From: Cylicocyclus nassatus | Lineage: Eukaryota; Nematoda; Chromadorea; Rhabditida; Strongylidae | Reading direction: 5' to 3' | NCBI GenBank assembly: GCA_958299035.1 | Contig: CATQJL010000223.1 | Span: forward strand, 46,426,162 to 46,490,161 | DNA: 64,000 bases | Shown: positions 1,421-54,354 of the stretch, piece by piece | How the letters are laid out: each line of letters begins with the position of its first letter | How positions within the stretch are numbered: the stretch's first letter is position 1 | Made by a program: the position numbers and the translations under genes | Notes under the pieces: model-generated | What the model saw: only the letters and a program-made list of their open reading frames with translations | What the model was told of the DNA's origin: nothing | Database searches by the model: none

Positions 1421-2225
1421 TGCCGTCCCGTTAGGATATCGGTATTTTTCTCATGATTTCTGGTAAATCATAACACTGGACCCTTGCCACTGATGATTAG
1501 CAAGAAATTCGGCGATTTTTGAAAAGTGCTGAGAAATAGAATGTGAATGCCTTACAAAACCTACAAAATTCTATCCGCTAAAAGTATAGCACACTTCAAA
1601 AATGGTAAATTTCTCTAATTTCCGAAAATCGTTGGGGGATGATTGAGGAGCGGAAAGAATGAAATCTCTATTCTCTGTAAAAACTTCAAAACGCCTCGGA
1701 GTTCATGAATATAAATCATCTGAGACTAAAGCCGGCCTCATATCAAAAATCTCTTGAACTTAGAATTCGTGATATCTGGGTAAAGTGCAGATAGGTCAAA
1801 ATCGCTGGTTTCAACTTTATCCTGAATTTTCGATTAGAATAATTGTAAGAGGAATATCAACATTCTGAATTAAGAAGTTTTCAAAAAAAACTCAAGAATT
1901 ATGAAAATGCTTGATTGATTTGGAAATATCTGGGCAAGAAGCCTAAGGCTGACCAAGGTCGTAAGGGTCAGCATCATAAGTGAAAAAAAACGTTGCAAAA
2001 AATAGGCAATATTCTTTTTGCAGGCAACGACGAGCTACTTATGGCTGCCGTTATTAGTTTTCATGGTTTTCTGAAAGCTTTCACAGACTTTTATATTGCT
2101 TTAAGTATCAGTGGTAAAAAGCTACTTCAATTCTCGTACTTTCGCGAGATTTACGTGGTAGAAGGTGGAAATTTTCATTTACAGCACCTTCTTTCATGTA
2201 CCTTCCGCCTTTCGGCTCAAAAATA
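1421..2225. other. No feature seen
   Basis: AT-rich sequence. The open frame at 1993-2229 runs into the mobile element that starts at 2226 and is not supported as a gene. Confidence 0.4.
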
Positions 2226-2870
2226 TTAGGTCGTTCCGAAAGTTCTTTCCGTTTTTTCAACCTATCATAAAAACACATGAAATGAAGGTAGGGAAACGCT
2301 GCAGGCACCAACCGACGCAGCTTTTCTTCCTCTTTTTGACTATCATATTTCTGTGCCGCTTGCTCTTGTGGTCATTGAGATAATGGCCAAAATTTCGAAC
2401 CCATGGTTTTTACCATGTCCAATTTTGGCAATTTTTCACAATCTTCTTTTTTGACTTTTGGAGAAGCTTTGATAGCATTCAGATAGAGTAAACAAAGTGC
2501 AATTTAATGCAATTTTCCGGCATCCGTAGCTAACCTAAAAATTTTTTTAGAATTATTTTTTTGATGCTGTCAATTTCCACATTTGGTGATGCCAAGACCC
2601 ATAGAACATAAAACGACACACAACTAAGGTGTCATTCGATGCAGCTTTTTCTCCTCTTTCTGCTGAGCATTTTTCTTCCTAATTTCTGGGGGGTTTTTGG
2701 CGATAAAATTTCTATAGTTGTTGATTTTGAACCCGCTTAAAGGTGTACACGTGAAATGCAAAATCTTGTATTTCGAAGCAATAAACACTCAGTTACTTTG
2801 TAAAAATAGTGGACAATCATAAACGACTTTTGAAAGTGTCGAAACCGAAGATTTGTTAATTCAAACGCTG
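2226..2870 (+). mobile_element. Half of a mariner-type foldback element (TTAGGTCGTTCC family)
   Basis: Begins with TTAGGTCGTTCCGAAAGTTC and is a diverged copy of one arm of the foldback at 23689-24708, including the inner block with the reversed gtcgtttatgattg sequence near 2810-2850. The matching right arm and closing CCTAA end are missing, so this is a single arm or a truncated copy. No transposase is encoded. Confidence 0.75.
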
Positions 2871-23380: not shown

Positions 23381-23632
23381 TGCTAACAGGAAGAGCAAAA
23401 TTGAGTTTTCAAAACTTTTCTGACCTTTACAACTTCAAAACTAGAGAGGTTCACTAAAACTAAGAGCTCTCAAGACAAAATCGCTTTCCAGGCCCAATTT
23501 TTTCACTGCGAGGATAATTTCCGATTCTGACAGGCTACTGGCACAAGATGCTCATCAGAAGACATTAGCTAAATTTATTACTACAAACCGTCGTCGTCTT
23601 TCTTGAAACAGTACTCTGCGTTGATACCACTG

Positions 23633-23636
<4 letters not shown>

Positions 23637-23688
<52 letters not shown>
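23637..23688. repeat. (TA)n microsatellite, 52 bp
   Basis: Pure TA repeat directly abutting the TTAGG end of the next foldback. TA is the mariner target, so this tract probably marks insertion sites. Confidence 0.95.
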
Positions 23689-23692
<4 letters not shown>

Positions 23693-24708
23693 GTCGTTCC
23701 GAAAGTTCTTTCCGTTTTTTCAACCTATCATAAAAACACGAGGAATGAAGATAGGGAAACGCATCAGGCACTATCCGACGCAGCTTTTCTTCCTCTTTTC
23801 AACTGTCATATTCGTGTGCCGCTTGCTTTTGTGATCCGTGAGATAATGTCTGAAATTTCGAACCCATGGTTTTCACGGTGTCCAACTTTGGCAATTTTTC
23901 ACATCCTTCTTTTTTGACTTTTGGAAAAGCTTCAATAGCACTCGGATAGAGTATACAAAGTGCAATTTAATGGAATTTTTTTGGCGACTTCAACTGGCTT
24001 CTTAGTATTTTTTGAGATAATTTTTCCAGAAGTCCTCACTTTTTCGAAGTCACAAAAAACAAAAAGGCTCCAAACATCAACAAATCTTCGGATTCCGGCA
24101 CTTTCAAAAGTCGTTTATGATTTTCCATTATTTTTACAAAGTAACTCAGTGTTTACCGCTCCGAAATATAAGATTTCGCTTTTCGCGTGTACACCATTAG
24201 GCGGGTTCAAAATCAAGATATGGAAATTTTATCGTCAAAAACTCCCACAAATTGGGAAGAAAAATACTCAATAGAAAGAGGAGGAAAAGCTGCATCGAAT
24301 GACACCTTAGTTGTGCGCTTTTTTATGTTCTATGATTCTTGGCATCACCAAAAGCGGAATTTGATAGCATCAGAAAAATATTTCTAAAGATTTTTTAAGG
24401 CTAGCCATAGGCGCCGAAAAATTGCATTAAATCGCACTTTGTTTGCTCTATCTGACTGCTATCAAAGCTTCTCCAAAAGTCAAAAAAGAAGATCGTGAAA
24501 ATTCGCCAAAGTTGGACATGGTAAAAACCATTAGTTCGAAATTTCGACCATTATCTCACAGAGCACAAGGGCAAGCGGCACACGAATATGACAGTTGAAA
24601 AGAGGAAGAAAAGCTGCGTCGGATAGTGCCTGATGCGTTTCCCTACCTTCATTCCTCGTGTTTTTATGATAGGTTGAAAAAACGGAAAGAACTTTCGGAA
24701 CGACCTAA
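23689..24708. mobile_element. Mariner-type foldback, TTAGGTCGTTCC family, 1020 bp
   Basis: TTAGGTCGTTCCGAAAGTTC at the left, exact inverse at the right. Arms of several hundred bp pair (for example gataggttgaaaaaacgg against ccgttttttcaacctatc). TTAGGT plus a TA flank fits the Tc1/mariner superfamily. No transposase frame: the element is non-autonomous. Related copies: 2226-2870 (half) and 36141-39194 (interrupted). Confidence 0.88.
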
Positions 24709-24712
24709 TATA

Positions 24713-25416
24713 TTAGGTTGGTGCAAAAGTTCTTTCCGCCCAAATTCAAAAATTCATAACTTGTTAAATTCTCAACGAAACTGCAAGATCTAAATTTTGC
24801 TTAAGAGAGAAACTCATGCTCTTTGCATCTGTACCTGAACTGTTCGTTAAAGTTTACAACTTAAGAAGACAGAAGCTTAGAATCAAAATCACTCAAAATT
24901 TGAATTTTTCGTGTAGGGTCGTAAAAAATCGGAAATCTGCAACAAAAATCGAAGCAGTCAGTATTGTAGGATCTTTCACCAGCTCTTTCTAACGGTGCAA
25001 AGTTTGCGCTGATTGAGCGCCTCTATCAAAAGTTATGAATTTCGAGCAAGCAATACAAAAGGGCGAATTTGATTTATTTTGGCATTTTTCAGGAAAATCA
25101 TAACTTTTCATAGAGACGCTCAATCAGCGCAAACTTTGCACCGTTAGGAAGAGCTGGTGAAAGAACCTACAATCCTGACTGCTCCGATTTTTGTTGCAGA
25201 TTTCCGATTTTTTATGACCCTACACGAAAAATTCAAATTTTGAGTGATGTTGGTTTTGAGCTTCTATCTCCTTAAGTTGTAAGCTTTAACGAACACAGGT
25301 ACAGATGCAAATAGCATGAGTTTCTCTCTTAAGCAAAATTTAGATATTGCAGTTTCGTTGAGAATTCAACAAGTTATGAATTTTTGAATTTGGGCGGAAA
25401 GAACTTTTGCACCAAC

Positions 25417-25420
<4 letters not shown>
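24713..25420. mobile_element. Mariner-type foldback with Hsmar1-like ends, 708 bp
   Basis: The ends read TTAGGTTGGTGCAAAAGTT, then CTTTCCG. These 19 bases equal the known start of the human mariner Hsmar1 and its MITE MADE1. Arms of about 350 bp pair along their length. It follows the previous element after only TATA. Confidence 0.88.

Positions 25421-25490
<70 letters not shown>
25421..25490. repeat. (TA)n microsatellite, 70 bp
   Basis: TA repeat with two TG interruptions, between two foldbacks. The second copy at 29388-29455 is 2 bp shorter. Confidence 0.95.
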
Positions 25491-25491
<1 letters not shown>

Positions 25492-26508
25492 TAGGTCATT
25501 CCGAAAGTAATTTCGCATTTTTCAAACGGACGCCACATTCGATGGAACAGAGATTTTTAGGAAATCTTGGTAGCGTTCGATGCAGAATTTTATTCTCTTT
25601 CTAACGGTTATGAAATGTTGCAAAATAGTCAATGGGGCTTCAGAAAATAACTAAAATCTGCGACCCATGCTTTTTGAGATGGTCAAGTTTCACGATTTTT
25701 TAAAACTTTCATATTAATCCTCAGAAAAAGTTCAAGTGACGGTTCGATAGAGCAAACCACATAGAATACAGCCCAACTTTTTCCTCTATCCCATAGCTTG
25801 TCATACATTTTTAATAGAATTTTAGCTGATGCTACCGATTTCCATATTTGTACACCTAAATCTCGTAGAACATCAAAGGAAGAGCAGCTCGGGCACTATT
25901 CAATGCAGCATTTTCTCCTCTTTCCAATGGGTGTTTTTTGTTTCCGATTCGTTTAGTTTTCGGGGATAAAATTATCACAATTCAATTTTTCAAGGAGCCC
26001 CAGGCTGTACCCGAAAAACTCGAAACTTGATATTTCGAATCCGTAAACTCTCATTTGCTTTATAAAATCAATATTAAGTCATATATCATCTTGAAAGTTT
26101 GAAATTCCAAGTAATTACTGATGTTTGATGCGATGTGGCTGAGGTGGGCCTGCCAAAATCCGATGGCTTTCAAAAAAAAATTTTTTTTCAAATTATGGCG
26201 AGCTATGAGAAAGAGAAAAAAGTAGTACTGTATTCTATATGGTTTACTCTATTGAATACTTGCTTGACCTCCTTCTGAAAATTGATATGAAAGATTTAAA
26301 AAATTGTGAAATTGACCATTTCAAAAAGCCTAGGTCGCAGATTTTGGTTATTTTCTGAAAGCTTATTGACTATTTTGCAACAGTTTCATAACCGTTAGAA
26401 AGAGAATGAAATTCTGCATCGAACGCTACCAAGATTTCTTAGAAATGTTTGTTCCATCAAATGCGGCGCCCGTTTGAAAAAAGCGAAATTACTTTCGGAA
26501 TGACCTAA
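25491..26508. mobile_element. Mariner-type foldback, TTAGGTCATTCCGAAAGTAA family, 1018 bp
   Basis: Terminal TTAGGTCATTCCGAAAGTAA is inverted at the right end (TTACTTTCGGAATGACCTAA). Arms share tctgcgacc, ttctctttctaacggttatgaa and similar blocks in inverted order. The same family occurs at 55938-56956. No coding frame. Confidence 0.88.
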
Positions 26509-26528
26509 TATATATATATATATATATA

Positions 26529-27239
26529 TTAGGTGGGTCCGAAAGTTCTGTCGTTTCATTTTTAGAAATTTGTAACTTCGCGAAATTTCAACGGATTTGC
26601 TTGTATGTAATTTCATTAGAAAGATTAGGTCTTCCGCTTTCAGACGTTGTTTTGTGGAGCTTCTGTTTCACACTGAGTGCAGAGATAAAAATGGAAAACT
26701 AAGACCATATAAACTTTGACCATTTTAAGTTAGGTCACCAAAAATCTGGAATGCTGCAGAAAAATCTGAAATCGTCAGTACATATGTTTTTTCGCCTCCT
26801 CTTTGTAGGTGTGAAGAGTTTGTGCTATTTGGACGTCTCTGTGAAAAGTTATGATTTTTGCGAAAATTGACAAATTAAATAATTTTGGCGTTTTCTATAG
26901 TAAACTCGATATTCATAACTTCTCACAGAGACGTCCAAACAGCACAAACTCTTCACAGCTGCAAAGAAAAGGTCAAAAAAACAAACGTACTGCCGATTTC
27001 AGATTTTTCTCCAACATTCCAGATTTTTGGTGACCTAACTTAAAATGGTCAAAGTTTATATGGTCTTAGTTTTCCATTTTTATCTCCGCACTTAGTGTGA
27101 AACAGAGGCTTCGCAAAAAAGCATTTGAAAGAGAAAGAATTATTCTTTCTACCAAAGTTACAAACAAGCAAATCCGTTGAAATTTCGCGAAGTTACAAAT
27201 TTTTGAAAATGAAACGACAGAACTTTCGGACCCACCTAA
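26529..27239. mobile_element. Mariner-type foldback, TTAGGTGGGTCCGAAAG family, 711 bp
   Basis: Terminal TTAGGTGGGTCCGAAAGTTC is exactly inverted at 27220-27239. The arms meet near 26880, where agacgtc and cacaaactcttcaca blocks mirror each other. Separated from the previous element by (TA)10. Confidence 0.88.
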
Positions 27240-28483: not shown

Positions 28484-29383
28484 CATGGTAAAAACCATTA
28501 GTTCGAAATTTCGACCATTATCTCACAGAGCACAAGGGCAAGCGGCACACGAATATGACAGTTGAAAAGAGGAAGAAAAGCTGCGTCGGATAGTGCCTGA
28601 TGCGTTTCCCTACCTTCATTCCTCGTGTTTTTATGATAGGTTGAAAAAACGGAAAGAACTTTCGGAACGACCTAATATATTAGGTTGGTGCAAAAGTTCT
28701 TTCCGCCCAAATTCAAAAATTCATAACTTGTTAAATTCTCAACGAAACTGCAAGATCTAAATTTTGCTTAAGAGAGAAACTCATGCTCTTTGCATCTGTA
28801 CCTGAACTGTTCGTTAAAGTTTACAACTTAAGAAGACAGAAGCTTAGAATCAAAATCACTCAAAATTTGAATTTTTCGTGTAGGGTCGTAAAAAATCGGA
28901 AATCTGCAACAAAAATCGAAGCAGTCAGTATTGTAGGATCTTTCACCAGCTCTTTCTAACGGTGCAAAGTTTGCGCTGATTGAGCGCCTCTATCAAAAGT
29001 TATGAATTTCGAGCAAGCAATACAAAAGGGCGAATTTGATTTATTTTGGCATTTTTCAGGAAAATCATAACTTTTCATAGAGACGCTCAATCAGCGCAAA
29101 CTTTGCACCGTTAGGAAGAGCTGGTGAAAGAACCTACAATCCTGACTGCTCCGATTTTTGTTGCAGATTTCCGATTTTTTATGACCCTACACGAAAAATT
29201 CAAATTTTGAGTGATGTTGGTTTTGAGCTTCTATCTCCTTAAGTTGTAAGCTTTAACGAACACAGGTACAGATGCAAATAGCATGAGTTTCTCTCTTAAG
29301 CAAAATTTAGATATTGCAGTTTCGTTGAGAATTCAACAAGTTATGAATTTTTGAATTTGGGCGGAAAGAACTTTTGCACCAAC

Positions 29384-29456
<73 letters not shown>

Positions 29457-30866
29457 TAGGTCATTCCGAAAGTAATTTCGCATTTTTCAAACGGACGCCA
29501 CATTCGATGGAACAGAGATTTTTAGGAAATCTTGGTAGCGTTCGATGCAGAATTTTATTCTCTTTCTAACGGTTATGAAATGTTGCAAAATAGTCAATGG
29601 GGCTTCAGAAAATAACTAAAATCTGCGACCCATGCTTTTTGAGATGGTCAAGTTTCACGATTTTTTAAAACTTTCATATTAATCCTCAGAAAAAGTTCAA
29701 GTGACGGTTCGATAGAGCAAACCACATAGAATACAGCCCAACTTTTTCCTCTATCCCATAGCTTGTCATACATTTTTAATAGAATTTTAGCTGATGCTAC
29801 CGATTTCCATATTTGTACACCTAAATCTCGTAGAACATCAAAGGAAGAGCAGCTCGGGCACTATTCAATGCAGCATTTTCTCCTCTTTCCAATGGGTGTT
29901 TTTTGTTTCCGATTCGTTTAGTTTTCGGGGATAAAATTATCACAATTCAATTTTTCAAGGAGCCCCAGGCTGTACCCGAAAAACTCGAAACTTGATATTT
30001 CGAATCCGTAAACTCTCATTTGCTTTATAAAATCAATATTAAGTCATATATCATCTTGAAAGTTTGAAATTCCAAGTAATTACTGATGTTTGATGCGATG
30101 TGGCTGAGGTGGGCCTGCCAAAATCCGATGGCTTTCAAAAAAAAATTTTTTTTCAAATTATGGCGAGCTATGAGAAAGAGAAAAAAGTAGTACTGTATTC
30201 TATATGGTTTACTCTATTGAATACTTGCTTGACCTCCTTCTGAAAATTGATATGAAAGATTTAAAAAATTGTGAAATTGACCATTTCAAAAAGCCTAGGT
30301 CGCAGATTTTGGTTATTTTCTGAAAGCTTATTGACTATTTTGCAACAGTTTCATAACCGTTAGAAAGAGAATGAAATTCTGCATCGAACGCTACCAAGAT
30401 TTCTTAGAAATGTTTGTTCCATCAAATGCGGCGCCCGTTTGAAAAAAGCGAAATTACTTTCGGAATGACCTAATATATATATATATATATATATTAGGTG
30501 GGTCCGAAAGTTCTGTCGTTTCATTTTTAGAAATTTGTAACTTCGCGAAATTTCAACGGATTTGCTTGTATGTAATTTCATTAGAAAGATTAGGTCTTCC
30601 GCTTTCAGACGTTGTTTTGTGGAGCTTCTGTTTCACACTGAGTGCAGAGATAAAAATGGAAAACTAAGACCATATAAACTTTGACCATTTTAAGTTAGGT
30701 CACCAAAAATCTGGAATGCTGCAGAAAAATCTGAAATCGTCAGTACATATGTTTTTTCGCCTCCTCTTTGTAGGTGTGAAGAGTTTGTGCTATTTGGACG
30801 TCTCTGTGAAAAGTTATGATTTTTGCGAAAATTGACAAATTAAATAATTTTGGCGTTTTCTATAGT
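28484..30866. repeat. Near-exact copy of 24517-26901
   Basis: By eye, every base compared matches 24517-26901 except a (TA)n that is 2 bp shorter. The copy holds the right arm of the first foldback, the whole Hsmar1-like foldback (28680-29387), the next foldback (29456-30473) and part of the one after (30494-30866), and ends at the N gap. It is either a very recent tandem duplication or an assembly repeat. Confidence 0.9.
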
Positions 30867-31366: not shown

Positions 31367-31592
31367 AAGCAGTGGTATCAACGCAGAGTACTAAGCAGTG
31401 GTATCAACGCAGAGTACTAAGCAGTGGTATCAACGCAGAGTACTAAGCAGTGGTATCAACGCAGAGTACTTCGAAGAAAGAAAAATGGTTTTGAAGAAAA
31501 GACGGTCGGCAGCTGTGCATTACCAAGGGTTACAAAAAGCTGGATGCGGCTTGTACAACTTTTCGCTAAGCAGTGGTATCAACGCAGAGTAC
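31367..31592. other. Library adaptor contamination (SMART primer)
   Basis: The 25-base SMART/SMARTer primer, which begins AAGCAGTGGTATCAACGCAG, occurs at 31367-31391, 31393-31417, 31419-31443, 31445-31469 and 31568-31592, each followed by T or TA. The 98 bases at 31470-31567 between copies 4 and 5 are an insert of unknown origin. This is not genomic sequence. Confidence 0.97.
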
Positions 31593-31867
31593 TAGTACAG
31601 TAGGTGCACTACTTACTGTTAGGTAGACAGCTTGAAATCCATCTATCTGGAACTTCAGTGTACAAACTTTCTCCCAAGCTGCGATCCCTTCCCGGCAGGG
31701 AATGTTAATGCATGCAGCCCTAAGGCCCCTATGCACTACATCCCCGCTGAGGAGGGGAGGGTATCTGAGAACGGACGTTAACTGAGTGTAATAATGGATG
31801 GTAGAACATTGCTAAGAGCTCCCTCATTTTCGAAGTCGTCTACCTTCTCAGATCTTAAATGAAAACG
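31593..31867. other. Short unique stretch with a relic of the TTAGGCCC MITE
   Basis: cctaaggcccctatgcacta at about 31719 matches the end of the MITEs at 44362 and 62870. Its neighbour is an adaptor, so linkage to what lies left of the gap is uncertain. Confidence 0.5.
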
Positions 31868-32212
31868 TCGTAATCAGAGGTGCGATAGGGGGGGGGGGTT
31901 GGCCGGGCCCCCCAAAAGTGAAGGTGGTTCCAGCTACCACTGGCCGGCCAAAACTGAAGGATGGTAGTGCCGGTCACTCACCTCCCAAAAACGTTGACCG
32001 GGGAGGGGAGGGGGGGTAGAGAGGGAGAGGGTAGCATAGGACGGGCTTTGGGTTTGGGTTTTTTGGGTTGGTTTAGGTTTTTTGGTTTTTTTTGGTTTGG
32101 GTTATTTCGGACTTTTGGGTTTTGTTTTTTTGTTGAAACTTAAAAAAAAGGAAATTAAGCAAAACGAACGCAAGAAAGTGTTGAGAGCATATTCTATGTT
32201 GTTTACTTTTAG

Positions 32213-32292
32213 GAAGTCGCCGTCGCCCACTGCGAGCACTGGAGGCCATCACCGATATGGACGCATATATGCCTCAGCACTTTCTACGATAG
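32213..32292 (+). pseudogene. Histone H4 3'-end remnant, left arm
   Basis: The bases GCCGTCGCCCACTGCGAGCA read A-V-A-H-C-E and line up with the H4 segment DAVTYCEH (nematode H4 has Cys where vertebrate H4 has Thr). After an eroded stretch, ATGGACG..TATATGCcCTCA corresponds to the codons of MDVVYAL, and CTACG to LYG near the C-terminus. Small deletions break the frame. Two histone-type stem-loops follow 49-82 bases downstream, the normal place for a histone 3' end, which strongly supports the call. Upstream residues are not clearly recognisable. Confidence 0.6.
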
Positions 32293-32340
32293 AGCAAAGC
32301 TTCATGATGACTTCGGTCAACTGAAGAGCTCTAACCCAAC

Positions 32341-32389
32341 GGTCCTCTTTGGGGCCAATAACTGTGACCCAACGGCCCTCTTTAGGGCC
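32341..32389 (+). promoter_or_regulatory. Two histone-type mRNA 3' stem-loops, left arm
   Basis: Stem-loop 2 (32374-32389) is GGCCCTCTTTAGGGCC: a perfect 6-bp stem and a 4-base CTTT loop, with 5' flank CCCAAC and 3' flank ACGAA. This is the layout bound by stem-loop-binding protein in replication-dependent histone mRNAs. Stem-loop 1 (32341-32356) is a variant with a mismatched right stem. They form a 33-bp tandem repeat. An AATAAA lies near 32425. Confidence 0.7.
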
Positions 32390-33812
32390 ACGAATACGAT
32401 GAGTACAACTGCATAAATATTTTAAATAAAGGTGTTAATGAAATAGTTTGTGAGTGATACTCAGCTAGACTTCATGTGTTTTATCAAGTACATTTTGTCA
32501 TGACGTACTGCGAAGAAAGTAGGTCGATCCAGGCAGTAATCGTCGAGAACCAGAATTTCGAATGATAAAATAATGAAAAATCGTGCGATGATTCCATTGT
32601 TTAAAATTTGCTGGTTGAAGACGTCTGCAATTGCGACTTCATAGGTTTTGAAGGGTAGGTGTTGTTCTACCAGACAGTGAAAGAATCAGTTTGATTTGAG
32701 GAGTGGCAGAACGAGAATTTTGAAAAATCTTAAAAATCTTCTCAATTTTAGGTTGCTTAATGACAGCTGAAAGTTAAACTCTTATAAATCCGGACTTTGA
32801 AGGTGTATGATGTTGCGACTTCATGGGTTTTGTAGGGTGAGGTTTGCCCTATCAAAATATGTCTCAGCTGTACCGATCCATTGAAAAATCGCCGAGATCC
32901 AGGCTCTTAAAAAAGCAGGTAAACACCGTTTTTCAGTTCATAACTTCATAATTGCATAACTCATGTTGAGACTTCATGGGATGGATTCTCCTCATCAAGA
33001 GCTTTCAGATGATAAATAATATGTGGGGGATTCAATGTTTCTTGCAGCTCTAACTCGGAGTACTCCTCTTCACTAATTCTCCACCCGCCCATTTCAATGT
33101 ATTGGCGGGAAGCCGCCAGTGGAGAATTAGTGAAGTACTCCACCCCCGGGCACATGCTGTGGGAGGCGTGAATCCCCTACGAATTATATATCATTTGAAA
33201 GCACTTGATGAGGAAAATCCAGCCCATGAAGTCGCAACATGAATTATGCAATTATGAGGAAGTTATGAGCTGAAAAACGGTTTTTTACCTGTTTTTTAAG
33301 AGCCTGGGTCTCGGCGATTTTTCAATGGATCGGTACAGCTGAGACATATTTTGATAGGGCAAACCTCACCCTACAAAACCCATGAAGTCGCAACATCATA
33401 CACCTTCAAAGTCCGGATTTATAAGAGTTTAACTTTCAGCTGTCATTAAGCAACCTAAAATTGGGAAGATTTTTAAGATTTTTCAAAATTCTCGTTCTGC
33501 CACTCCTCAAATCAAACTGATTCTTTCACTGTCTGGTAGAACAACACTTACCCTTCAAAACCTATGAAGTCGCAGTTACTGACGTCTTCAACCAGCAAAT
33601 GGAAATGGAATCATCGCACGATTTTTCATTATTTTATCATTCGAAATTCTGGTTCTCGACGATTACTGCCTGGATCGACCTACTTTCTTCGCAGTACGTC
33701 ATGACAAAATGTACTTGATAAAACACATGAAGTCTAGCTGAGTATCACTCACAAACTATTTCATTAACACCTTTATTTAAAATATTTATGCAGTTGTACT
33801 CATCGTATTCGT

Positions 33813-33861
33813 GGCCCTAAAGAGGGCCGTTGGGTCACAGTTATTGGCCCCAAAGAGGACC
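33813..33861 (-). promoter_or_regulatory. Two histone-type mRNA 3' stem-loops, right arm
   Basis: Mirror copy of the left-arm pair: perfect stem-loop at 33813-33828, variant at 33846-33861, both read on the minus strand. Confidence 0.7.
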
Positions 33862-33908
33862 GTTGGGTTAGAGCTCTTCAGTTGACCGAAGTCATCATGA
33901 AGCTTTGC

Positions 33909-33989
33909 TCTATTGTAGAAAGTGCTGAGGCATATATGCGTCCATATCGGTGATGGCCTTCAGGTGCTCGCAGTGGGCGACGGCGACTT
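33909..33989 (-). pseudogene. Histone H4 3'-end remnant, right arm
   Basis: Inverted copy of the left-arm remnant with a few substitutions (for example tggccttcaggtgctcgcagt against the left arm). It carries the same frame-breaking deletions, so the damage came before the palindrome formed or was copied between the arms. Confidence 0.6.
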
Positions 33990-34178
33990 CCTAAAAGTAA
34001 ACTACATAGAATATGCTCTCAATACTTTCTTTTGCGTTCGTTTTGCTTAATTTCCCTTTTTTCAGTTTCAGCAACAAAAAAATCAAAACCCAAAAGTGAA
34101 GGTGGTCACCCTGTACCAGCTCAAAAGTGAAGGTAGGCGCAGAATCGGCTCCGACTATCGCACCTCTAGTCGTAATGT

Positions 34179-35449
34179 TATACTGAGACACTATGACACT
34201 ACTACTATGACACTGTTGGGGATAGTTTCGCAGAACATGTGGATAGTGCACAATGATGATGCACCGCAGCTCGCAAACAGCGGTCTGTCGAAATTTTGAT
34301 GTCCCAAGATTTCAGTATTTTCTACTATAGACTTTAAGCACTGCCATAGTATATTCTCGGTACAATTTTACCATATTTTCATCGGGTTTATGGGGGAAAT
34401 AAATGGCTGTGAAAATGTGAGGCGATTTTTTGGAAATCTATAGGGGATCCACGAAACAATGAAGTTTTTAGCTTGTTGTCCTGTCATCTATTATACTCGG
34501 ACATTAGAACATGCGAATCTTCATAAGATAGATAGAAAAAGAATAATAGCTAACTTAAGGTGGCGTGACACATTTCCTCTCAGACTCTCACCCCTTTCGC
34601 GGGGATGTACGTGCATGCGGGCCCAAGCAACACCATCAAGAATCAGTAAATTATCTAATCCCGGTTTTCGCAATAGTTGTACGGAACTCAAGTTGGCTTT
34701 GGATCGCGCATAACAAAATTCAAAGGCAGATTCGAGAACAACTATGACTATGAACTCATTAAACAAAGACACGTTGCCATAAAGACAATTTTCCCAACCT
34801 TTGTATAATCCCTAAAGGTCCCCACGGTTGATAGTCTTTTCTTTAAGGTCATTTTTTTCTGTAAAGTTCATGGTCACAAATGTTGCCAAAAGATGCTGTA
34901 GAAGTGATAGAAATGGGGAGATTCCGATGTATTGAAGTTCTCGATGAGCTATAGGTCGAAACTCGGTTTTCATCCAAACAGAAATTAACTAGACATTTGT
35001 TCTCATGAATCATCCTGAGCACTACTGTATCAAGTACGCACAACTTTTTGAAGCTTTTACTATATATATGAAAATACAAGTTGTTTCGAAGAAAAGATGG
35101 CCAGTAGCTGAATATTAAGAGAACATGCAGAAACATGGAATGCTTGCACATTGGTAAGCTTTCGCAGAAGCACTTCAAGATGAACAGGCAGATAAGATCA
35201 AGAGTGCTGGGTTTCGGAATATATAATGAATCCCTTTTCGAGTGAAACTACCATCTTTGGCGGGAAGATATTTGCGTGCGGCCCTTGCCCACCGTGGAGT
35301 GCGGTAGTAAAATTTGAAAAATTTCAAGTTTCGAGGACCATATTTTGTTTTAAGACATTACCCGAACATTTCCAACGCTCTGCAGTAGAACAATTTAGAT
35401 CTTTAGAGTCGCTGACTAAAAGTACGGAATTTGCTCTCCCGCTCGTATG
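34179..35449. other. No supported gene; one MITE end
   Basis: ggggatgtacgtgcatgcgg..cccaagcaac near 34601-34630 resembles the right end of the TTAGGCCC MITE family. Other open frames show no motif. Confidence 0.4.
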
Positions 35450-36055
35450 CCGGGAAAACCGTCTCTTCCCAAGAAGTCTTTTGTTTTGCTTCAGGTACCG
35501 TTTTGTAGAGCTGGCTTCAACTTAAATTTGCATTATAAAACGAGTCACCCCATCTTTCCTCATTACTGTAAGATTGCGGTAGAAACTTCAAAGAAGGTTT
35601 TGAGCAATAAAAGGCCACATTTTCCCCATAGAGAAAATAAAACAGCCTGAAAACTTTTACACTAGGCTAATTAGAGATGCTGATTATAACTGTAAAGTTC
35701 CCAATATATCATGATGCTTCATTGAAGAGTTATGCCAAGTAAGAGGTAGCGGCCATTTTTTCAATGTTTCTAAAAAATGCGGTTACACCGTTTAAAAAGC
35801 TTCGTAACCTTGTGAATAGTTGAGTATTGAACTCGGCGTCCATAAAAACCCCAATACACAAGTTTTCATATTTTTTTGAAAAATTTTGAAACGGCAGCTT
35901 TTTCCACATTGAGACCATATGTTTCAAGTTTCTACCGTAATCCTACAGTGATGAAGAGAGATGAGTGATTCGCTCTATAATGCAACTAAGTTGAAGCCAG
36001 CTCTACAAAACGGTACCTGAAGCAAGGCAAAAAACTTCTTGGGAAGAGAGATATT
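35450..36055. repeat. Inverted repeat, about 600 bp, arms of about 250 bp
   Basis: cttcccaagaagt, caggtaccgttttgtagagc and gcttcaactta at 35455-35525 are inverted at 35988-36055. Inner blocks (aaacttcaaa, gattgcggtag) also mirror. The ends do not carry TTAGG, so this belongs to a different family. Confidence 0.7.
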
Positions 36056-36089
36056 AACGATCAAACGTTCGATACATTCTTTTGGGACT

Positions 36090-36092
<3 letters not shown>

Positions 36093-36140
<48 letters not shown>
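36093..36140. repeat. (TA)n microsatellite, 48 bp
   Basis: Pure TA tract directly preceding a mariner-type foldback end. Confidence 0.95.
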
Positions 36141-36144
<4 letters not shown>

Positions 36145-36573
36145 GTCGTTCCGAAAGTTCTTTCAGTTTTTCAACATATCATAAAAACACGAGGAATGAA
36201 GGTAGGGAAACGCTTCAGGCACTGTCCGACGCAGTTTTTCTTCCTCTTTTCAACTATCTCACTCCTGTGCCGCTCTTGCGGTCAGTGAGATAATGGCCGA
36301 AATTTCGGACCTATGGTTTTTACCATGTCCAACTTTGGAAATTTTTCGCTATCTTCTTTTTTGACTTTTGGAAAAGCTTTGGTAGCAGTCGGATAGAGTA
36401 AACAAAGCACAAGTTTATGCAATTTTTTGGCAATTTCAGCTGGCTTCTCATTATTTTTTGAGATAACTTTTTCAGAAGACTTCACTTTTTCAGAGTCACA
36501 AAACACACAACACTCTGAACATCAACAAATCTTCGGTTTTCGAAACTTTCAAAAGTCGTTTATGATTGTACAC

Positions 36574-38606
36574 TATACTTGGGTCCGAATCGAATAGAAA
36601 TTCGATCATTCGAATAAAACATTCGAATATATTCGTATTCGAAATTCGATATTCGGAGTTCTTCCATTTTCGAATAATATTCGAAACTCGAATAATTGAG
36701 AAAACGGGTTTTCGAATAAAATTCGAAACTCGAATAATCAAAAAACAGGGTTTCGAATAAAATTCGAAAACTCGAATAATCAAAGAACGAGGTTTCGAAT
36801 ATTATTCGAAAACTCGAATAATCAAAAAACGGGGTTTCGAATAGATTTTATTCGAATGTTTTATTCGAGTGTTTATTCGAATTCGTATTCGAATGTACTC
36901 CGTATTCAGATTATTCGACTTTGTTGCAGAGCCAACTGCTGAGTATCAAGCTCACTTCGTCCGCGTTTTTTTTGCAAAACTCGGTAATGCATCTTTTGCA
37001 ACCGGTCTACCTTTGAACTGTATGGAGAGTCGCATTCTTCCGACTGCTTGCGACAGTAAAAAAATCATATGTGGATTTTAATTGATGTTTTTTCGATCAA
37101 TGAGATCGCACTGCTATTGGCACCAAATCAGCAAAGAAGATATCAAATTCAAGCACATGTTCTGAGTTCATACTGAATTGAAATGGCTGTTCTTCTTTCT
37201 TTGCATTGCTCATGCTTGCGGTACGCAAAGCCCACACTAATGAGCACTCTTGCTCTCATAAATTATTGCAAAACTGTCTATTCGTTACCTTGGAGTTTTT
37301 TGCGAATTGGTGTATATTGAGTAAAGGACATCGCAGTTGTAGTGCAGGATTAGACGGCTTAGATCGCCGTACGCGATTTGCCAGTTACGAGATGTCTTCA
37401 GAGTAATGGCAGCTTACCACAAATGTTTAGCGTGTACAACATACTAAAGAGGTAAATGCTGATAGATAGATAGATGCTAAAAGATAAATGCTGGGTGCTG
37501 ATTATGGATAAAAATTTACTTTATCGATTTTATCGATTTTTGGAAAATCTTGAGCTACGAGGTTGGGAGTTGGTACAAAGGGGTAAGTGAGCTCAGATAA
37601 TCGCCGGGGACAGGCGGTCCGCAAACTCGCGCTTTTCTGCAGGCGATCAGCAGAATTTTAGGGCGTGGCCAAACCTTCAGCGGGCGGCACTTCCTTTACG
37701 GTCGCATATTCTGCCAGAGGGCAGCAATACAGCATTTTTTGCAAGCGCTCGGCAAATAATTTTTTTCAGCGAGCGCTGGCCAAACTTTCAGCAAGCGCTC
37801 GGACTCTTTTAAGGCATTTTCGGGCGTACGTCGAGCGCAGATAAGACTCTGTGTGGCAGAGGTGCCATCGTTGGTTTAATTACTCAAGTTTGAGGTACTT
37901 TCTCAGCGGAAAGTACCTGGGGGTTGCGCGGTCCTCCACAAAGGACCGTGCGGCCCTCGAAATTTTTGCATATTTTCGCGGAAAGTCCGCGAGAATGCGG
38001 CCACTGCGCCGCAGCTAATCCATAAAGAAATCGCGATTGTTCTTCAAGCATTCGTCTTTGATTTCGCCAACTTTCTTCCAAATTTCTGCGAGCGGGCCGC
38101 AAAAAATCAACGAACTATTTTTCCGGTGCGCACTTGCTCAAAATTCGCATGGCCGCCTGCCCCGGCGGTTATGTGAGGAGGGTGCTGATTAAAACCGAAA
38201 TCTACTTCATTGATTTCAGCAATTTTTGGAAAATTTTGAGCTAGGAGTTGGTATAGGGGATACTAGGGGGCTGATTATGATTGGATCGGCTTTAGCCAGA
38301 TATGTCGGCAAGTTTGAGATGTGATTGCTCTAGTTATTCTATAAATCATTCGAATATTTATTCGAAATTCGACTTTCAATGTTCGAATATATTCGCTAAT
38401 CATTCATTTGATATTTTTGATTTTCCGAATTTATTCGAAATTCATTCATTCGATATTTTTGATTTTCCGAATTTATTCGAAATTCATTCATTCGATATTT
38501 TTGATTTTCCGAATCTATTCGATACTCGTTTATTCGAGATTTTTTATTTTCGAATTTATTCGATATTCATTCATTCGATGAAAAATTATCGAATTACCCA
38601 AGTATA
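36574..38606. mobile_element. hAT-like non-autonomous element, 2033 bp, carrying an SL RNA gene
   Basis: Terminal inverted repeat TATACTTGGGT / ACCCAAGTATA, flanked by the 8-bp direct repeat TTGTACAC (36566-36573 and 38607-38614). An 8-bp duplication of pattern nTnnnnAn is the hAT superfamily signature. Both subterminal zones are arrays of ATTCGAA motifs in units of about 42-45 bp (36590-36900 and 38330-38600), related to each other in inverted orientation. The middle holds two direct copies of Helitron-related sequence (37497-37590 and 38170-38290) around the SL RNA candidate. No transposase was recognised; an open stretch at 36925-37080 is unassigned. Confidence 0.65.
37873..37992 (+). ncRNA. 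SL1-like spliced-leader RNA gene
   Basis: The first 22 bases (37873-37894) match nematode SL1 at 21 positions; base 12 is T instead of C (AATTACTCAAGTTTGAG is the 3' part). The leader is followed at once by the donor GT (37895). Three hairpins follow: 37893-37902 with 37909-37918 (10 bp, enclosing the donor), 37926-37935 with 37942-37951, and, after a single-stranded AAATTTTTG Sm-type site at 37960-37968, 37976-37982 with 37986-37992. Leader, donor in stem 1, stem 2, Sm site, stem 3 is the SL RNA plan, and about 120 nt is the right size. The role would be donating a 5' exon in trans-splicing. It lies inside a transposon-like element rather than in a 5S rDNA array. Whether it is expressed is unknown; the substitution at base 12 could mean a variant leader or a decaying copy. 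Confidence 0.75.
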
Positions 38607-39194
38607 TTGTACACTATTTTCACAAAGTAAATGAGCGTTTATCGCTTCGATATATAAGATTTCGCATTTTACGGATACATCATGAGGCGGGTTCAGAATC
38701 AAGATTTATGGAAATTTTATCGCCAAAACCCCCACAAACTAAGAAGAAAAAGCACTCATCAGAAAGAGAAGAAAAAGCTGCATCGAATGACACCTTAGTT
38801 GTGCGCCGTTCCATGTTCTATGGCTTTTGGCATCCCCAAAAGTGGAATCTGATAGCATCAGAAAAATAATTCTAAAATGTTTTGAGGCTAGCTATAGATG
38901 CCGAAAAATTGCACAAAATTGCGCTTTGTTTACTCTATCCGACTGCTACCAAAGCTTTTCCAAAAGTCAAAAAAGAAGATAGTGAAAAATTGCCAAAGTT
39001 GGACATGGTAAAAACCATGGCTCCGAAACTTCGGCCATTATCTCACTGACCAAAAGAGTGAGCGGCACAAGAATATGATAGTTGAAAAGAGGAAGAAAAG
39101 TTGCGTCGGACAGAGCCTGAAGCGTTTCCCTTTCTTCGTTCCACGTGTTTTTATGATATGTTGAAAAAGCGGAAAGAACTTCGGAACGACCTAA

Positions 39195-40079
39195 TATATC
39201 TTTGCTGATGTCTTTTTCATGCATTGATACTTCGGTTTTCTACCATTGCAAGACTCTCCTTTGACTATTTCTACTCACGTGTTTTGCACGTATCAATGAA
39301 ATGAAAATCAAAATAAAAAACAGACCTCTCTTGAGCTTGGAGTATGAACTTTTGAGAGATTCTAGCACTTGTAAGTAGTTTGCAGAGGGTATAGCATTCT
39401 GTCCATACACATCGCAGACTTTTCGGGGGGTTTTTCAAGCGTTAAATCCCATTTTGAGACGCAGCGTAAGATAGTTGTCGAAGATGGAATTTCTGAGGTC
39501 CCGTTTGCAGTCTAAATTACCATTCAACTTCTTGAAACTAAAGAAATAATGATAACAATTTGGTAGAGCAGACTTAGAGCTTCCGAATGCATACAAACAT
39601 TTTGCCAGATGCTGTGAAATATTGAGAAAAAACTAGAACAAAAATGCGAACAACAACCTAATAGATCTACCCAAGTTGTCAAAGTCTCCACCAGTTTATT
39701 TGAAGAAAACCTCTTAAATAAACAATAGCTTTTTGAGCACATCCAACACGCCAGCGTAGCAAACTCCAAAATGCTAATATTCTTGGAAGAGAATCAAACT
39801 TGATCATCTTGCGCAAAATGTGATAAATGGCAATCAAGCTTCACTGCGAGAGAAACTCTGAAATTTTCCATTAACTCTGAAACTTTTCCATTTTTCCCGC
39901 AGATGCATGTTTTGCAATTTTGTAACCCAAAAAGCGAGGGAAAGAATTTCGGAGCGCTATCGTAGTTTCTCTGTTTGTTTGATATCCAGTTTCGAAAGTC
40001 TAGAATGGAGTTTTCAAGTTAGTCGAACTTGCGAATAGAAATGGCAAAAGAACAACTTTCGGTAACATGTAGTGGCTTG
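39195..40079. other. No supported gene
   Basis: AT-rich sequence. A minus-strand frame at 39524-39769 has no recognised domain. Confidence 0.4.
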
Positions 40080-41385
40080 CGGAATTCATTGGTCCGATGA
40101 CATAACCATGAAGGAGAAGAAAACGCTGCATCGAGGGCTTCTTTAAACTGTTAATTTATCATCATAATTCTTAGTCGCTCAAAAAATGTACCAAACTTTT
40201 GGGACAGACCTAATGTAAGTAATAAAAATATTCGATGTACGACGCCTTTCTTGGTAATTTATTAGGCTGTAATAAGTTTTGCAACTGGTTTCATAACTTC
40301 ACTCTCTCCCAACATGAGGCATTCAAATTTCATTATTGTTTAGGTTATTTCGTAAGCCACAAGTGCAGCTGCTATTCTGCCAAATTCTGACGTCACAATG
40401 ACGGTTATGGTAGGCATATGGTATGAAGGGGCCAAGTTTGACGGATTTGGCTGAACCTTGGCATAGAGATGTTATCCGTCATGCTGATCACGAAAACAAT
40501 AGTGAAGTTGCGTGATAAGGGCTTTTTTTAAGGTTACTGTAGGTTTACAATACAGGGGTCTCACCATTAACAAGGAAAAAGGCGTTGATATAACAAATGA
40601 ATATGATATTCGCGTTCGGCAGGTCAAATAACCTTTCTATGTAAAGTCTCGGCGGAATTTGAGCTTCGGACTCTTTAGTCATTGACAGTCGTCCCCAGCA
40701 GCTCTTGCGTACATCAACTCGCTACTTTGTGAGGACGCCAAATCTCGATATGCCCCTAAATTTTGTTTCTTTCTTACTAGGCCAAAGGAGTCAACCTCCA
40801 GCAATAATTTGTAGACGAGTTTGGACAGTCTGTGCATGGTCTAGGCTGATAAAGGCTTCATTTTAGCTTGAAACCCCAAAAATTTCCAAATTTCATTAGT
40901 TTTCGAAAAATGTCTGAAACTTTTCTATTTCATGTTTTCAAAATTCATACAATTTGCGCCTACTTGTAGCACACATTACTCTCTATATAATGCCAAAGTT
41001 TGAGTGCGCCATATCCAAAGAGAGTGAAGTCATGAAACCAGTTGCAAAACTTAGCTTGCAGCCTAATAGTTGTACTAATAGAGCAACACGTACATTATTT
41101 ACTTTTACAAGTGCTTGTGCTTCCCCTGATAGCCGGCTCGAATCCTGTAAAATTCGGCAAACATAGCTTAATCTCCTTGATAACACCTTTACAAATTTAG
41201 TGCAGTCAAATGTCGATTCCAGAAGCTTTCACATGCTGCAAACTTGTTCGTTCACACGTACGAGCTTATGTTTGGACTGAGTATGTCTCCAACTAAACGC
41301 AGGTGATCGCGTGTGCTTTAAAAATTTATACGAACGCTCTCGTAGGGTCTTATAAAACGAAGGCATAAACACACTTGGCTGCGTC

Positions 41386-44300
41386 ATGGTAGGTTCACAT
41401 TATTATACCCAAAAGTAAAGACCGTTCATTTTCATTACAGTTCGGATTCACTCACGAAACTATACGACAGCTAATGCTCAGAAAATATGGAGAGGAATTC
41501 TGGACTAAAGTTTTGTGAGTGTTCTTACTTCATAAAGCACACACGTTGCATGATATTCCAGTTTTTTTAAAATGCTTAAAGCTGCGATAAAAAATTGCGG
41601 TCCCCAAAAGTGTACTTTTTCTGCTGCTCATTCAAAAATACCTAATCTGCTGAAAATCAAATTGAAGCGGAATTACAACTTGTTTGAAGCTATAGTACAT
41701 AACTTTGAATAAAAAGAAATTTGTATAATACCCTTCACTTTCTCAAGAGACCCTCCTGTCGATTTTTATAGAAAGTAAATATCACAGTAAAGCACTCATC
41801 TTCAATGAAATAAGGCTTTACCAAAATACTCCCGTTACGAGATACTCCTTGGTGTTGCCCTTCTTTGCGGATTTAATTTTCAACCACCATCCTGGCGACT
41901 CTTCTGGGCTAAAGCGATCTCCAAAAACTAAGAGTCTTGGAGAAATGTCAAGGTTCTGTAAGAGGACATCTTATAGCTCTTTTACATAGATGTTTGTAAT
42001 TGTCTCTTGAGAATTATAAAGGCAGAAAAGAACAAATTTTACATGTACTTTGAATTAGTCAGTGCTAAGGAGACATGGCTATTTTTAAGATTCAAAGTAT
42101 TCATCGTAAGAAAGAAGGAAGCTACGATTTTAGACAAAGAGCCGGATTTGAAAGTGGAAAGGAGAACATAGTCAATCACTACTATTCTGACTCCGACACC
42201 TACATCCTTGTGGATGCTGTCAGCGTGATAGGAAGTAAGTGTAACAATCCGCGAAAGTGGAGAAGCTGACTTCTTTTCAGATATGTCAAGAGAGCAAGTC
42301 TGGGAAATGTACGGCGGATTCTTGATTGAATATACTATGGAAATTGGATGGAACAACCTGATTCGCTCTATAAGTCCTAACTTGAAGGTACCCTATTTTC
42401 AGGTGTATAAGCCGCACTTTTTTGAAGTTTCGCCCGGGCTGCTCAGCTGCTTCACTGTGTTTCGAGAAGCGATCCTTATGCCGCACGATTCTTTCAGGCA
42501 ATACGCAGCACGGTATAGGGTTCTTTGGATGCGAGTTCCATTGATGTGTTCGGGCTGATCGATGTAAGCTGGGACCACCCCGCGGCTTATACACCTGAAA
42601 ATAGGGTAGTTAGCAACTAACCAACCTCTGATAATTGATGGTTTTCCTAGTTAGCTATTAGAGGATTTTTACTCAATAAACCGAGTAATGCCTACAGTCG
42701 AGTAGATTTCCCGCTTATATAGTTTGCTTGCACAGTTTATGAGATGCGGTAAAATTTGCGCGTGAACAGGTAGGTGCGCCAGCACTCCCGGCATTTTGCG
42801 CGCGCAGTTGGTCGGCGTCACAGTCGCAGCTAATTCCTCACGCGCAAATTTTGCCGCATTTCACCTTCTGTGCAAGCACACTGTATTAAGCAGAAAATCT
42901 ACTCGACTGCACCTTTAGCACGATTACCACTTTAGATTTAGTTATTAAATCAAAATGTCAGGATAAAACTCCTGCCCTAGATCGCAGAAATTGCGGACTG
43001 TGTGATATGTGGCACATCCGAAGCTTAGGGTTGGGCCTGACTGCGCGGCGTAAGCGGCGTACGTGACGTACGCAGCGTACGCTCCTATGATGAAATATAC
43101 CGAGCGTACGCTGCGTACGTCACGTACGCCCGTACGCCGCGCACTCTGGCTCAAGTTTTTAGAGGTGAATTTTGGTTCTAACGCAACTGATACTTGACAT
43201 AACTTAGGGTAGGTATATGTCAGTGTAGTTAGGTAAATGTCAATGCAGTGATGTTTTCTCAAATCACGACAGAAAGTATAAAACGATTTGCCCATGAAAA
43301 GCGAGTTGAATGTATTTTTAGTTAGTAGATTCATCTATTAGGTTGTCCCACAAGTCTTTTCATTTTTGAGTTTTGCTGTAATAAGTCACACACTTCTGAT
43401 TCTAAACAGACATCAGGACACCATTCGATAAAGCAAAGCAAGCTCTATAAAATGGCGTTTATGCTTTCGCTCAAGCTTTGGTCCATCTCGAATTTTAAAT
43501 CAAAATCTAAAAAGTTTCGGATGGCCAGAAAACAGAAAAATTTTTATATCTCCGTTCGAAAAATTCCTACAAATTTCAAACTCGCTCCATATACATTTCA
43601 CATCAGACATTCATATGTGCTGTTGCTGTATTTTTTAATCGGCTAGAAATCAAGAAACCGAAAATTTTCACGTTTTTACCAAAGTGATGCTGTGCTGCTT
43701 TTACTCTAACAGTTGTATACTACAAGAACTTAGAAGTACAGTCGTGAATTCTTAGCTCTCTATAAGCTCTGGTTTCCGAGAAATGTTTATTTAAGCGGGA
43801 AAAACCCGAGTAAAGAAAGCTAAATTTGGTATTTCTCGTGAACCAGAGTATATAGAGAGCCAAAAATCTACGGTAGTACTTCTAAGGGCTTCTAGCATAC
43901 AAATGTTAGTGTAAGAATAGCACAGCATGACTTTGGTAAAAACATGGAAATTTTCGATTTCTTGATTTCTAGCTGATAAGAAAATACAGCAACAGCACAT
44001 ATGAATGTCTGATGTGAAATGTATATGCATGAGCGAGTTAGAAATTTGTAGGAATTTTTTGAACGGAGTTATAAGGATTTTTCTGTTTTCTGACCATCCA
44101 AATTCAGATTTTGATTTAAAACTCGAGATGGACCAAAGCTTGTGCAAAAGCATAAACACCATTTTATAGAGCTTGCTTTGCTTTATCGAATGGTGTCCTG
44201 ATGTCTGATTAGAACAGAAGTGTGTGACTTATTGCAGCAAAACTCAAAAATGAAAGGACTTGTGGGACAACCTAATAGTTTAAAGATAATCGCCGAATCA

Positions 44301-53481: not shown

Positions 53482-54354
53482 TCTTATATATAAAGCTGAA
53501 TGTCTGTTTGTCTGTCTGTATGTCTGTATGTCTGTATGTCTGTATGTCTGTATGTCTGTGTGTACGTATGTTCCGAATAAAAAATTCCATTTCTGAACCG
53601 ATCCGGACCAAACTTGGCACACATACACTTCGGGCCCCGGCGGGTGTCATAGGCTACTTTTCGTCATCGATCGATATCGATTTTATCGATTTTTATCAAT
53701 TTTTTTGCTGAGTTCACCTACGGGGCTGGGAGTTGGCACAGGGGGGTAATCGAGCATGGGGATTCCGAATACAATATTGGTTTTCAGGATTATCGATTAC
53801 TTTTATTGATTTTATCGATTTTTTTGCAAAGTTTGAGCTACGGGGCTGGGAGTTGGCACAGGGGGGTAATCGAGCATGGGGATTCCGAATACACTTGCTG
53901 ATGCTGATCATCCCCCTTGGGGATGATCAGCATGCTCGATTACCCCCCTGTGCCAACTCCCAGCCCCCTAGCTCAAACTTTGCAAAAAAATCGATAAAAT
54001 CGATAAAAGTAATCGAGAATCCCGAAAACCAATATTGTATTCGGAATCCCCATGCTCGATTACCCCCCTGTGCCCACTCCCAGCCCCCTAGCTCAAACTT
54101 TGCAAAAAAATCGATAAAATCGATAAAAGTAATCGATAATTCTGAAAACTAATATTGTATTCGGAATCCCCATGCTCACTTCCTCCCCTGTGCCAACTCC
54201 TAGCCCTGTAGGTGAACTCTGCAAAAAAATCGATAAAAATCGGTAAAATCGACATCGATCGATAACGAAAAGTGGACTGTGACACCCGCCGGGGCCCGAA
54301 GTGTATGTGTGCCAAGTTTGGTCCGGATACGGCGGAGCCGGGTAAGCCAGCTAG
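53482..54354. mobile_element. Helitron-like palindromic element, 873 bp
   Basis: Begins TCTTATATATAAAGCTGAAT after an A and ends GGGTAAGCCAGCTAG before a T, the A|TC...CTAG|T layout of Helitrons. A TGTCTGTA minisatellite follows the 5' end (53502-53565). Inside, ggaccaaacttggcac and gggccccggcgggtgt (53606-53650) are inverted at 54280-54325 around a central hairpin at 53896-53938. A unit with tttgagctacggggctggga repeats in each half. No Rep/helicase frame. Confidence 0.6.

What the first reader, a model, noticed from the sequence alone, without database searches (positions are those of the whole stretch)
37873..37992. SL1-like spliced-leader RNA gene carried inside a transposon-like palindrome
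The sequence shows a 22-base leader one base off SL1, a GT donor directly after it, three hairpins and an AAATTTTTG Sm-type site in the right order and spacing. Established knowledge: nematode SL RNAs have exactly this plan and are usually clustered, often with 5S rRNA. Here the gene sits in a 2-kb element with terminal inverted repeats and an 8-bp target duplication. Inference: SL RNA genes, or variant leaders, may be spread by a non-autonomous transposon in this species.
Basis: partly seen in the sequence, partly recalled or inferred. Interest (0 to 1): 0.88.

Follow-up and report, generated by a model that had tools for sequence, protein, structure and literature searches.

The report
Spliced-leader RNA gene inside a transposon
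In DNA that very likely comes from the horse roundworm Cylicocyclus nassatus, a gene built like those for the short RNA leader that worms splice onto their messages sits inside a piece of jumping DNA that landed in another one, so leader genes could be moved around a genome in this way; whether this copy is switched on or has siblings is untested.

Summary
At 37873-37894 is a 22-base leader, one base off nematode SL1, followed by a GT donor, two hairpins, an AAATTTTTG Sm-type site and a third hairpin; a scan for this plan hits only here in the window and nothing in random sequence. It lies in a nest: module D (586 bp, 26-bp inverted ends) inside element B (2,033 bp, 11-bp terminal inverted repeats, 8-bp target duplication) inside A, a mariner-like palindromic repeat. 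Two other copies of A in the window lack B, so B's insertion is shown. A Cylicocyclus nassatus protein is encoded in the window, so the source is very likely that horse small strongyle. Against a canonical gene: Rfam SL1 scores 15.9 bits (gathering score 75), the Sm core lies 67 nt after the leader (40-55 allowed for C. elegans), C follows it where one consensus asks for a purine, and the donor is predicted to pair with the intron, not the leader. No 5S gene was found in the window. The genome could not be reached (19 identical requests unanswered), so copy number, spread and expression are open.

The parts
37873..37894 (+). SL1-like leader, T at base 12 (21 of 22 bases of SL1)
   Evidence: SL1 letters also printed in PMC7652881
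37895..37896 (+). GT splice donor directly after the leader
   Evidence: sequence
37893..37918 (+). predicted hairpin 1, 11 pairs, holds the last two leader bases and the donor
37919..37958 (+). predicted hairpin 2, 17 pairs of which 4 are G.U, no mismatch
37960..37968 (+). Sm-type site AAATTTTTG, followed by C
37972..37996 (+). predicted hairpin 3, 11 pairs
37592..38177 (.). module D, 586 bp, G+C 0.52, ends form a 26-bp inverted repeat (one gap, two mismatches)
37493..37591 (+). repeat C, copy 1, directly left of D (also in the array at 53675-54247)
38180..38251 (+). repeat C, copy 2, same direction, directly right of D
36574..38606 (.). element B, 2,033 bp, TIR TATACTTGGGT at both ends, no protein domain found
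36566..36573 (.). target duplication TTGTACAC, left copy
38607..38614 (.). target duplication TTGTACAC, right copy
36668..36843 (.). 42-bp tandem array rich in TTCGAA, left arm of B
38384..38579 (.). 42-bp tandem array rich in TTCGAA, right arm of B
36136..36573 (.). host repeat A, left part (mariner-like ends, TA-rich border), broken by B
38615..39199 (.). host repeat A, right part
23684..24713 (+). other copy of A without B: empty site 1 (site within 24117-24141)
2223..2860 (-). partial copy of A without B: empty site 2 (site within 2796-2820)

Best explanation
An SL1-like spliced-leader RNA gene lies inside a 2,033-bp transposon-like element that inserted into a mariner-like repeat, and the leader gene likely came to this site aboard that element as captured cargo. 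Shown: leader, donor, Sm-type core and three pairable hairpins in order; the element's terminal repeats, 8-bp target duplication and two empty sites; the 586-bp inverted-repeat module D around the gene. Inferred: a non-autonomous element, mobilised by a transposase made elsewhere (the 8-bp duplication points to the hAT kind), carried D and its leader gene when it jumped. Inferred: the RNA, if transcribed, would bind Sm proteins, form an SL snRNP and donate the T12 leader to mRNAs. Recalled, from no call: in Ascaris the leader itself acts as a promoter element; if that holds here, a moved gene could stay transcribable, as SINEs do. Stated odds: SL-RNA-derived sequence 0.95; jumped with the element 0.6; still active 0.4.
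For: Leader 21 of 22, next best match 6 mismatches off, none in 100 shuffles. Plan unique in the window and 0 in 30 x 64 kb random one-strand sequence for each composition. 39 predicted pairs with 6 G.U and no mismatch: six chance substitutions in perfect stems would all keep a pair with probability 0.00004 to 0.016, depending on transition bias, so present or recent selection on the RNA is favoured. B's insertion: TSD 8 of 8, TIR 11 of 11, two empty copies of A. D's ends: 0 of 5000 random end pairs reach their score (the ends were picked by the self-scan, E = 0.004). D stands out in G+C: 0.52 against 0.393 for the window; of 1247 windows of its length only one, overlapping D, reaches it. No N in 36000-39300, and no adapter copy within 3 mismatches after 31593, so a marked assembly join is not the cause.
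Against: One copy each of B and D is in the window, so repeated carriage is not shown; D may have entered B after B landed. Rfam SL1 gives 15.9 bits against a gathering score of 75, E = 3 in a 501-base search, in which a chance-like match to bacterial OxyS on the other strand scored higher (16.9 bits); SL1 is not listed at gathering level nor at E up to 1 in 31600-44000. Sm spacing 67 nt is longer than allowed for C. elegans; the base after the Sm core is C, while PMC6362198 gives purine-AU4-6G-purine. T12 leader not found in the held papers. The wobble test assumes stems that once were perfect and stem ends not chosen to avoid mismatches.
Confidence: 0.55

Rival explanations
1. A dead SL RNA pseudogene: a chance capture of one SL gene copy in repeat-rich DNA, no longer transcribed or spliced.
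For: T12, C after the Sm core, long spacing, changed first stem, weak Rfam score. Many SL1 loci without a near Sm motif are reported for Heterodera glycines: 22 of 180 had one (PMC6362198, passage).
Against: All 39 predicted pairs intact with 6 G.U (simulated); donor, core Sm motif and third hairpin all kept.
Confidence: 0.35
2. Module D is an independent mobile unit (586 bp, own inverted ends) that carried the leader gene into B after B had landed; B is a bystander.
For: Inverted ends of D, direct repeat C on both sides, distinct G+C.
Against: No clear target duplication at D's edges (only GAG on each side, read by eye); no second D in the window.
Confidence: 0.3
3. Structured DNA palindrome with a chance leader-like stretch, no SL ancestry.
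For: Strong hairpins are common in this window: six of 2042 strand-windows, at three places, fold better.
Against: 21 of 22 leader match directly before GT, then hairpins and Sm core; the plan was not seen in random sequence at strict thresholds.
Confidence: 0.03
4. Assembly artefact: amplification chimera, given library adapters left elsewhere in the window.
For: Six adapter copies at 23610-23635, 31367-31470 and 31568-31593; a 2.1-kb stretch is repeated at 99.9% up to the gap.
Against: The nearest adapter is 6.3 kb from the gene and about 5 kb from B, there is no N in 36000-39300, and B has a clean target duplication with two empty sites.
Confidence: 0.04

Closest known systems
Nematode SL1 RNA genes (C. 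elegans sls-1, in tandem with 5S rRNA genes; PMC11822377, passages)
   Same: 22-nt leader, GT donor, hairpins, Sm-type site, final hairpin.
   Different: One leader base, longer leader-to-Sm distance, different predicted first stem, intron part unlike Rfam SL1, no 5S found in the window, lies in a transposon-like element.
MelSat01 / Mi-SL1b of Meloidogyne (SL gene inside satellite DNA; PMC9673304, passages)
   Same: An SL gene living inside a repeat other than the 5S array, with leader and Sm site kept.
   Different: A satellite repeat there; an inserted terminal-inverted-repeat element here.
SL1 leader variants (SL1M of M. javanica, PMC1657053; Ppa-SL1 variants, PMC7986045; degeneracy in H. 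contortus SL1, PMC7652881; passages)
   Same: SL1 variants, some with a single base change, are reported.
   Different: The T12 variant string was not found.
NeSL-1 and SLACS-type retrotransposons (recalled, no call)
   Same: Mobile DNA linked with SL genes.
   Different: Those insert into SL genes; here the SL-like gene is inside the mobile element.
hAT-type non-autonomous elements (recalled)
   Same: 8-bp target duplication; TTGTACAC fits the recalled target nTnnnnAn.
   Different: The TIR start TATACTTGGGT does not clearly fit the recalled hAT start; no transposase domain seen.

Membership tests
Nematode SL1-type SL RNA gene | 22-nt SL1 leader | tested here: met
   21 of 22 bases; variant base T12
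Nematode SL1-type SL RNA gene | GT donor directly after the leader | tested here: met
Nematode SL1-type SL RNA gene | single-stranded Sm site after the donor | tested here: inconclusive
   core ATTTTTG present and unpaired in the predicted fold; the purine after G in the consensus of PMC6362198 is not met (C instead); spacing 67 nt, outside 40-55, inside 30-80
Nematode SL1-type SL RNA gene | hairpins before and after the Sm site | tested here: met
   (predicted)
Nematode SL1-type SL RNA gene | leader pairs with the donor region (first stem; recalled plan) | tested here: not met
   predicted fold pairs the donor with the intron; the forced leader stem is 8.3 kcal/mol worse; prediction only, so I call the gene SL1-like
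Rfam SL1 (RF00198) | gathering score 75 bits | tested here: not met
   15.9 bits; not listed; so not filed as a member of this Rfam family
Nematode SL1-type SL RNA gene | linked to 5S rRNA genes or in an array (usual, not universal) | tested here: not met
   no 5S match at gathering level in the window nor in 31600-44000 at E up to 1; one leader in the window within 3 mismatches; the rest of the chromosome not searched
Nematode SL1-type SL RNA gene | transcribed, trimethyl-capped, leader found on mRNAs | not testable with these tools
   no RNA data held
hAT-type DNA transposon | 8-bp target duplication | tested here: met
   TTGTACAC on both sides, a single unduplicated site in two empty copies; a 12-bp reading ATTGTACACTAT is also possible
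hAT-type DNA transposon | hAT-type TIR start and transposase | tested here: inconclusive
   TIR does not clearly fit the recalled start; no Pfam domain in six frames of B, as expected for a non-autonomous element; not filed as hAT
Mariner-type element (host repeat A) | terminal inverted repeats at a TA target | tested here: met
   ends alike at 90% over 302 aligned columns, TA runs at the edges; family name by recalled look of the ends

The most novel reading that the evidence does not exclude
A family of small inverted-repeat elements carries working SL RNA genes, each with its own internal promoter, through a strongylid nematode genome, so that mobile DNA seeds new leader variants outside the 5S-SL array.
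Probability: 0.25. Interest if true: 0.8.

Novelty: new variant of a known kind. Interest (0 to 1): 0.6.

Why it matters
How nematodes came to have many leader variants and scattered SL genes is, to my knowledge, unsettled. A leader gene inside a well-bounded insertion gives a concrete route, transposon capture, that can be tested by counting element copies with and without the gene and by looking for the T12 leader on mRNAs.

Tried and rejected
Genome-wide copies: the genome search on the window's own assembly, the same request 19 times, never answered. Leader pattern in viral and genome contigs: 0 hits; these are collections of viral and prokaryote records, so the result says little. Protein relatives of a frame across the gene: no candidate; of an open frame in B's right arm: 156 candidates, none at E up to 0.001. 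H. contortus SL2 leader in the window: none within 3 mismatches. Histone genes beside two sub-threshold histone stem-loops: no histone domain in the stretches scanned. Chance palindrome and assembly artefact: rejected as given under rivals. The first version of the plan scan found nothing, the real site included, because it forbade a one-base overlap of hairpins; one search allows an overlap of up to two bases and is the one cited, so its rule was set after seeing the real site. The claim of outstanding folding was dropped because other hairpins in the window fold better. Papers seen: passages only for PMC7652881, PMC9673304, PMC1657053, PMC11822377, PMC6362198, PMC9303266, PMC12613986 and PMC10682056 (a reference-list line); passages and part 1 of section 13 for PMC7986045; no supplements or figures. 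On an SL gene inside a DNA transposon: one search found 0 papers; in the listings (20 of 22 shown; 5 of 6; 10 of 144) no title or abstract start names one. That is a limited search. No paper on the C. nassatus genome itself was found in the library (15 and 6 rows shown).

Full report
Source. P0002 (230 aa), named as Cylicocyclus nassatus, is encoded by the window. itself shows 90% identity over 46% of the query, because the query ran past an exon end; in the alignments residues 1-54 of P0002 are at 15433-15594, the following stretches within 15801-16364, and residues 193-230 at 18587-18700 (38 of 38), and I see no differing residue once introns and exon ends are set aside. The same frame matches Srh-type nematode chemoreceptors in Pfam. 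The window is therefore very likely C. nassatus, a horse small strongyle; the other hit, 86% identical, is from Cylicostephanus goldi, family Strongylidae.

The gene. At 37873 stands GGTTTAATTACTCAAGTTTGAG, one base (T at 12) off the SL1 leader printed for Haemonchus contortus in PMC7652881 (passage). The next best SL1 matches in the window have 6 mismatches. GT follows. The predicted RNA has hairpins of 11, 17 and 11 pairs, with AAATTTTTG unpaired between the second and third. A scan for the plan hairpin, hairpin, Sm core, hairpin finds this site alone on both strands and none in 30 x 64 kb one-strand random sequence of either composition; with relaxed thresholds, 0 and 1. The scan's overlap rule was loosened after a first version had missed the real site.

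Signs for and against function. Of 39 predicted pairs, 6 are G.U and none is broken. G.U pairs are mismatches in DNA but pairs in RNA; six chance substitutions would all keep a pair with probability 0.00004 (no transition bias) to 0.016 (transitions only). That favours past or present selection on the RNA. Against: Rfam SL1 gives 15.9 bits where 75 is asked, below a chance-like OxyS match of 16.9 on the other strand, and is not listed; the Sm core starts 67 nt after the leader, beyond the 40-55 used for C. elegans but within the 30-80 used for M. hapla (PMC7986045 Table 2); the base after the core is C, not a purine (consensus in PMC6362198); and the donor pairs with the intron, not with the leader, by 8.3 kcal/mol. 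By raw folding energy three other places in the window are stronger. I therefore call it SL1-like and do not file it in the Rfam family.

The nest. Outermost is A, a palindromic repeat with ends of about 300 nt (90% alike) at TA-rich borders, mariner-like by recalled appearance. Two other copies in the window, 23684-24713 and, in part, 2223-2860, run straight through the place where B sits: two empty sites. B is 36574-38606, with TATACTTGGGT at both ends and TTGTACAC on both sides; its arms hold 42-bp tandem arrays rich in TTCGAA, and six frames show no Pfam domain at E up to 1. Inside B two direct copies of repeat C (also arrayed at 53675-54247) flank D. D, 37592-38177, has ends that pair over 26 bp (0 of 5000 random end pairs reach the score; E = 0.004 in the self-scan that found it) and a G+C of 0.52 against 0.393 for the window; of 1247 windows of its length only one reaches it, and that one overlaps D. 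The leader gene lies in D. B's left arm and D have no second match in the window at E up to 0.01; the right arm has one of 38 columns at 79%.

How it likely works. The simplest order of events is: an SL RNA gene was captured in a small inverted-repeat module; the module became part of a non-autonomous element; a transposase supplied from elsewhere moved the element into A. The insertion of B is shown; that the gene was aboard is inferred. If transcribed, the RNA would be expected to bind Sm proteins and give its leader to mRNAs. From memory, the leader is itself a promoter element in Ascaris, which would let a moved copy stay transcribable; no call tested this here.

What is known. SL genes inside repeats are known: in Meloidogyne, satellite MelSat01 corresponds to the Mi-SL1b gene (PMC9673304, passages), and C. 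elegans keeps SL1 in repeats with 5S genes (PMC11822377, passages). SL1 variants with a single base change are known (PMC1657053, passage). An SL gene as cargo of a terminal-inverted-repeat transposon is named in no title or abstract start listed (one search found no paper), and the T12 leader string is in no held paper text. The finding is a new variant of a known kind: a known kind of gene at a new kind of address.

Limits. The genome was never reached, so copy number, the main SL1 genes of this species and RNA use are untested. The assembly carries leftover adapters at 23610-23635, 31367-31470 and 31568-31593 (the string is named as adapter contamination of PacBio reads in PMC12613986, passage), and 24801-26901 recurs at 99.9% as 28768-30866, ending at the 500-N gap. 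None of this touches 36000-39300, which has no N; the nearest adapter is 6.3 kb from the gene.

Noticed in passing
23610-23635, 31367-31470, 31568-31593: Six exact copies of AAGCAGTGGTATCAACGCAGAGTACT, an amplification adapter, left in the assembly; the first abuts a TA run before a copy of repeat A, four stand head to tail directly after the 500-N gap. Joins there may be chimeric.
   Followed up: partly
24801-26901 and 28768-30866: 2.1 kb repeated at 99.9%, the second copy ending at the base before the 500-N gap: very likely an assembly duplicate or a second haplotype.
   Followed up: partly
10822-11165: Fragment matching eukaryotic large-subunit rRNA, 135 bits, the only rRNA match at gathering level in the window.
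   Followed up: no
124-base windows at 18229, 43029, 44331: Foldbacks with energies of -81 to -114 kcal/mol, stronger than the SL-like hairpins; 43035-43150 also scores 50 bits to MIR8788, below its gathering score of 124.
   Followed up: no
32369-32414 (+) and 33788-33833 (-): Two histone 3' stem-loop matches just under the gathering score (30.7 against 34) on opposite strands; no histone domain in 31600-32500 (+) or 33700-35000 (-).
   Followed up: partly
53931-54248: 120-bp tandem repeat whose unit recurs beside module D.
   Followed up: partly
15304-18700: Srh-type chemoreceptor gene; the C. nassatus protein P0002 starts at an inner methionine (15433), while the open frame and the similarity to a C. 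goldi protein reach up to 15304.
   Followed up: partly
from about 24714 and 28681: Directly after copies of A's right end stands TTAGGTTGGTGCAAAAGTTCTTTCC, a second mariner-like end (family recalled): nested or neighbouring mariners.
   Followed up: no
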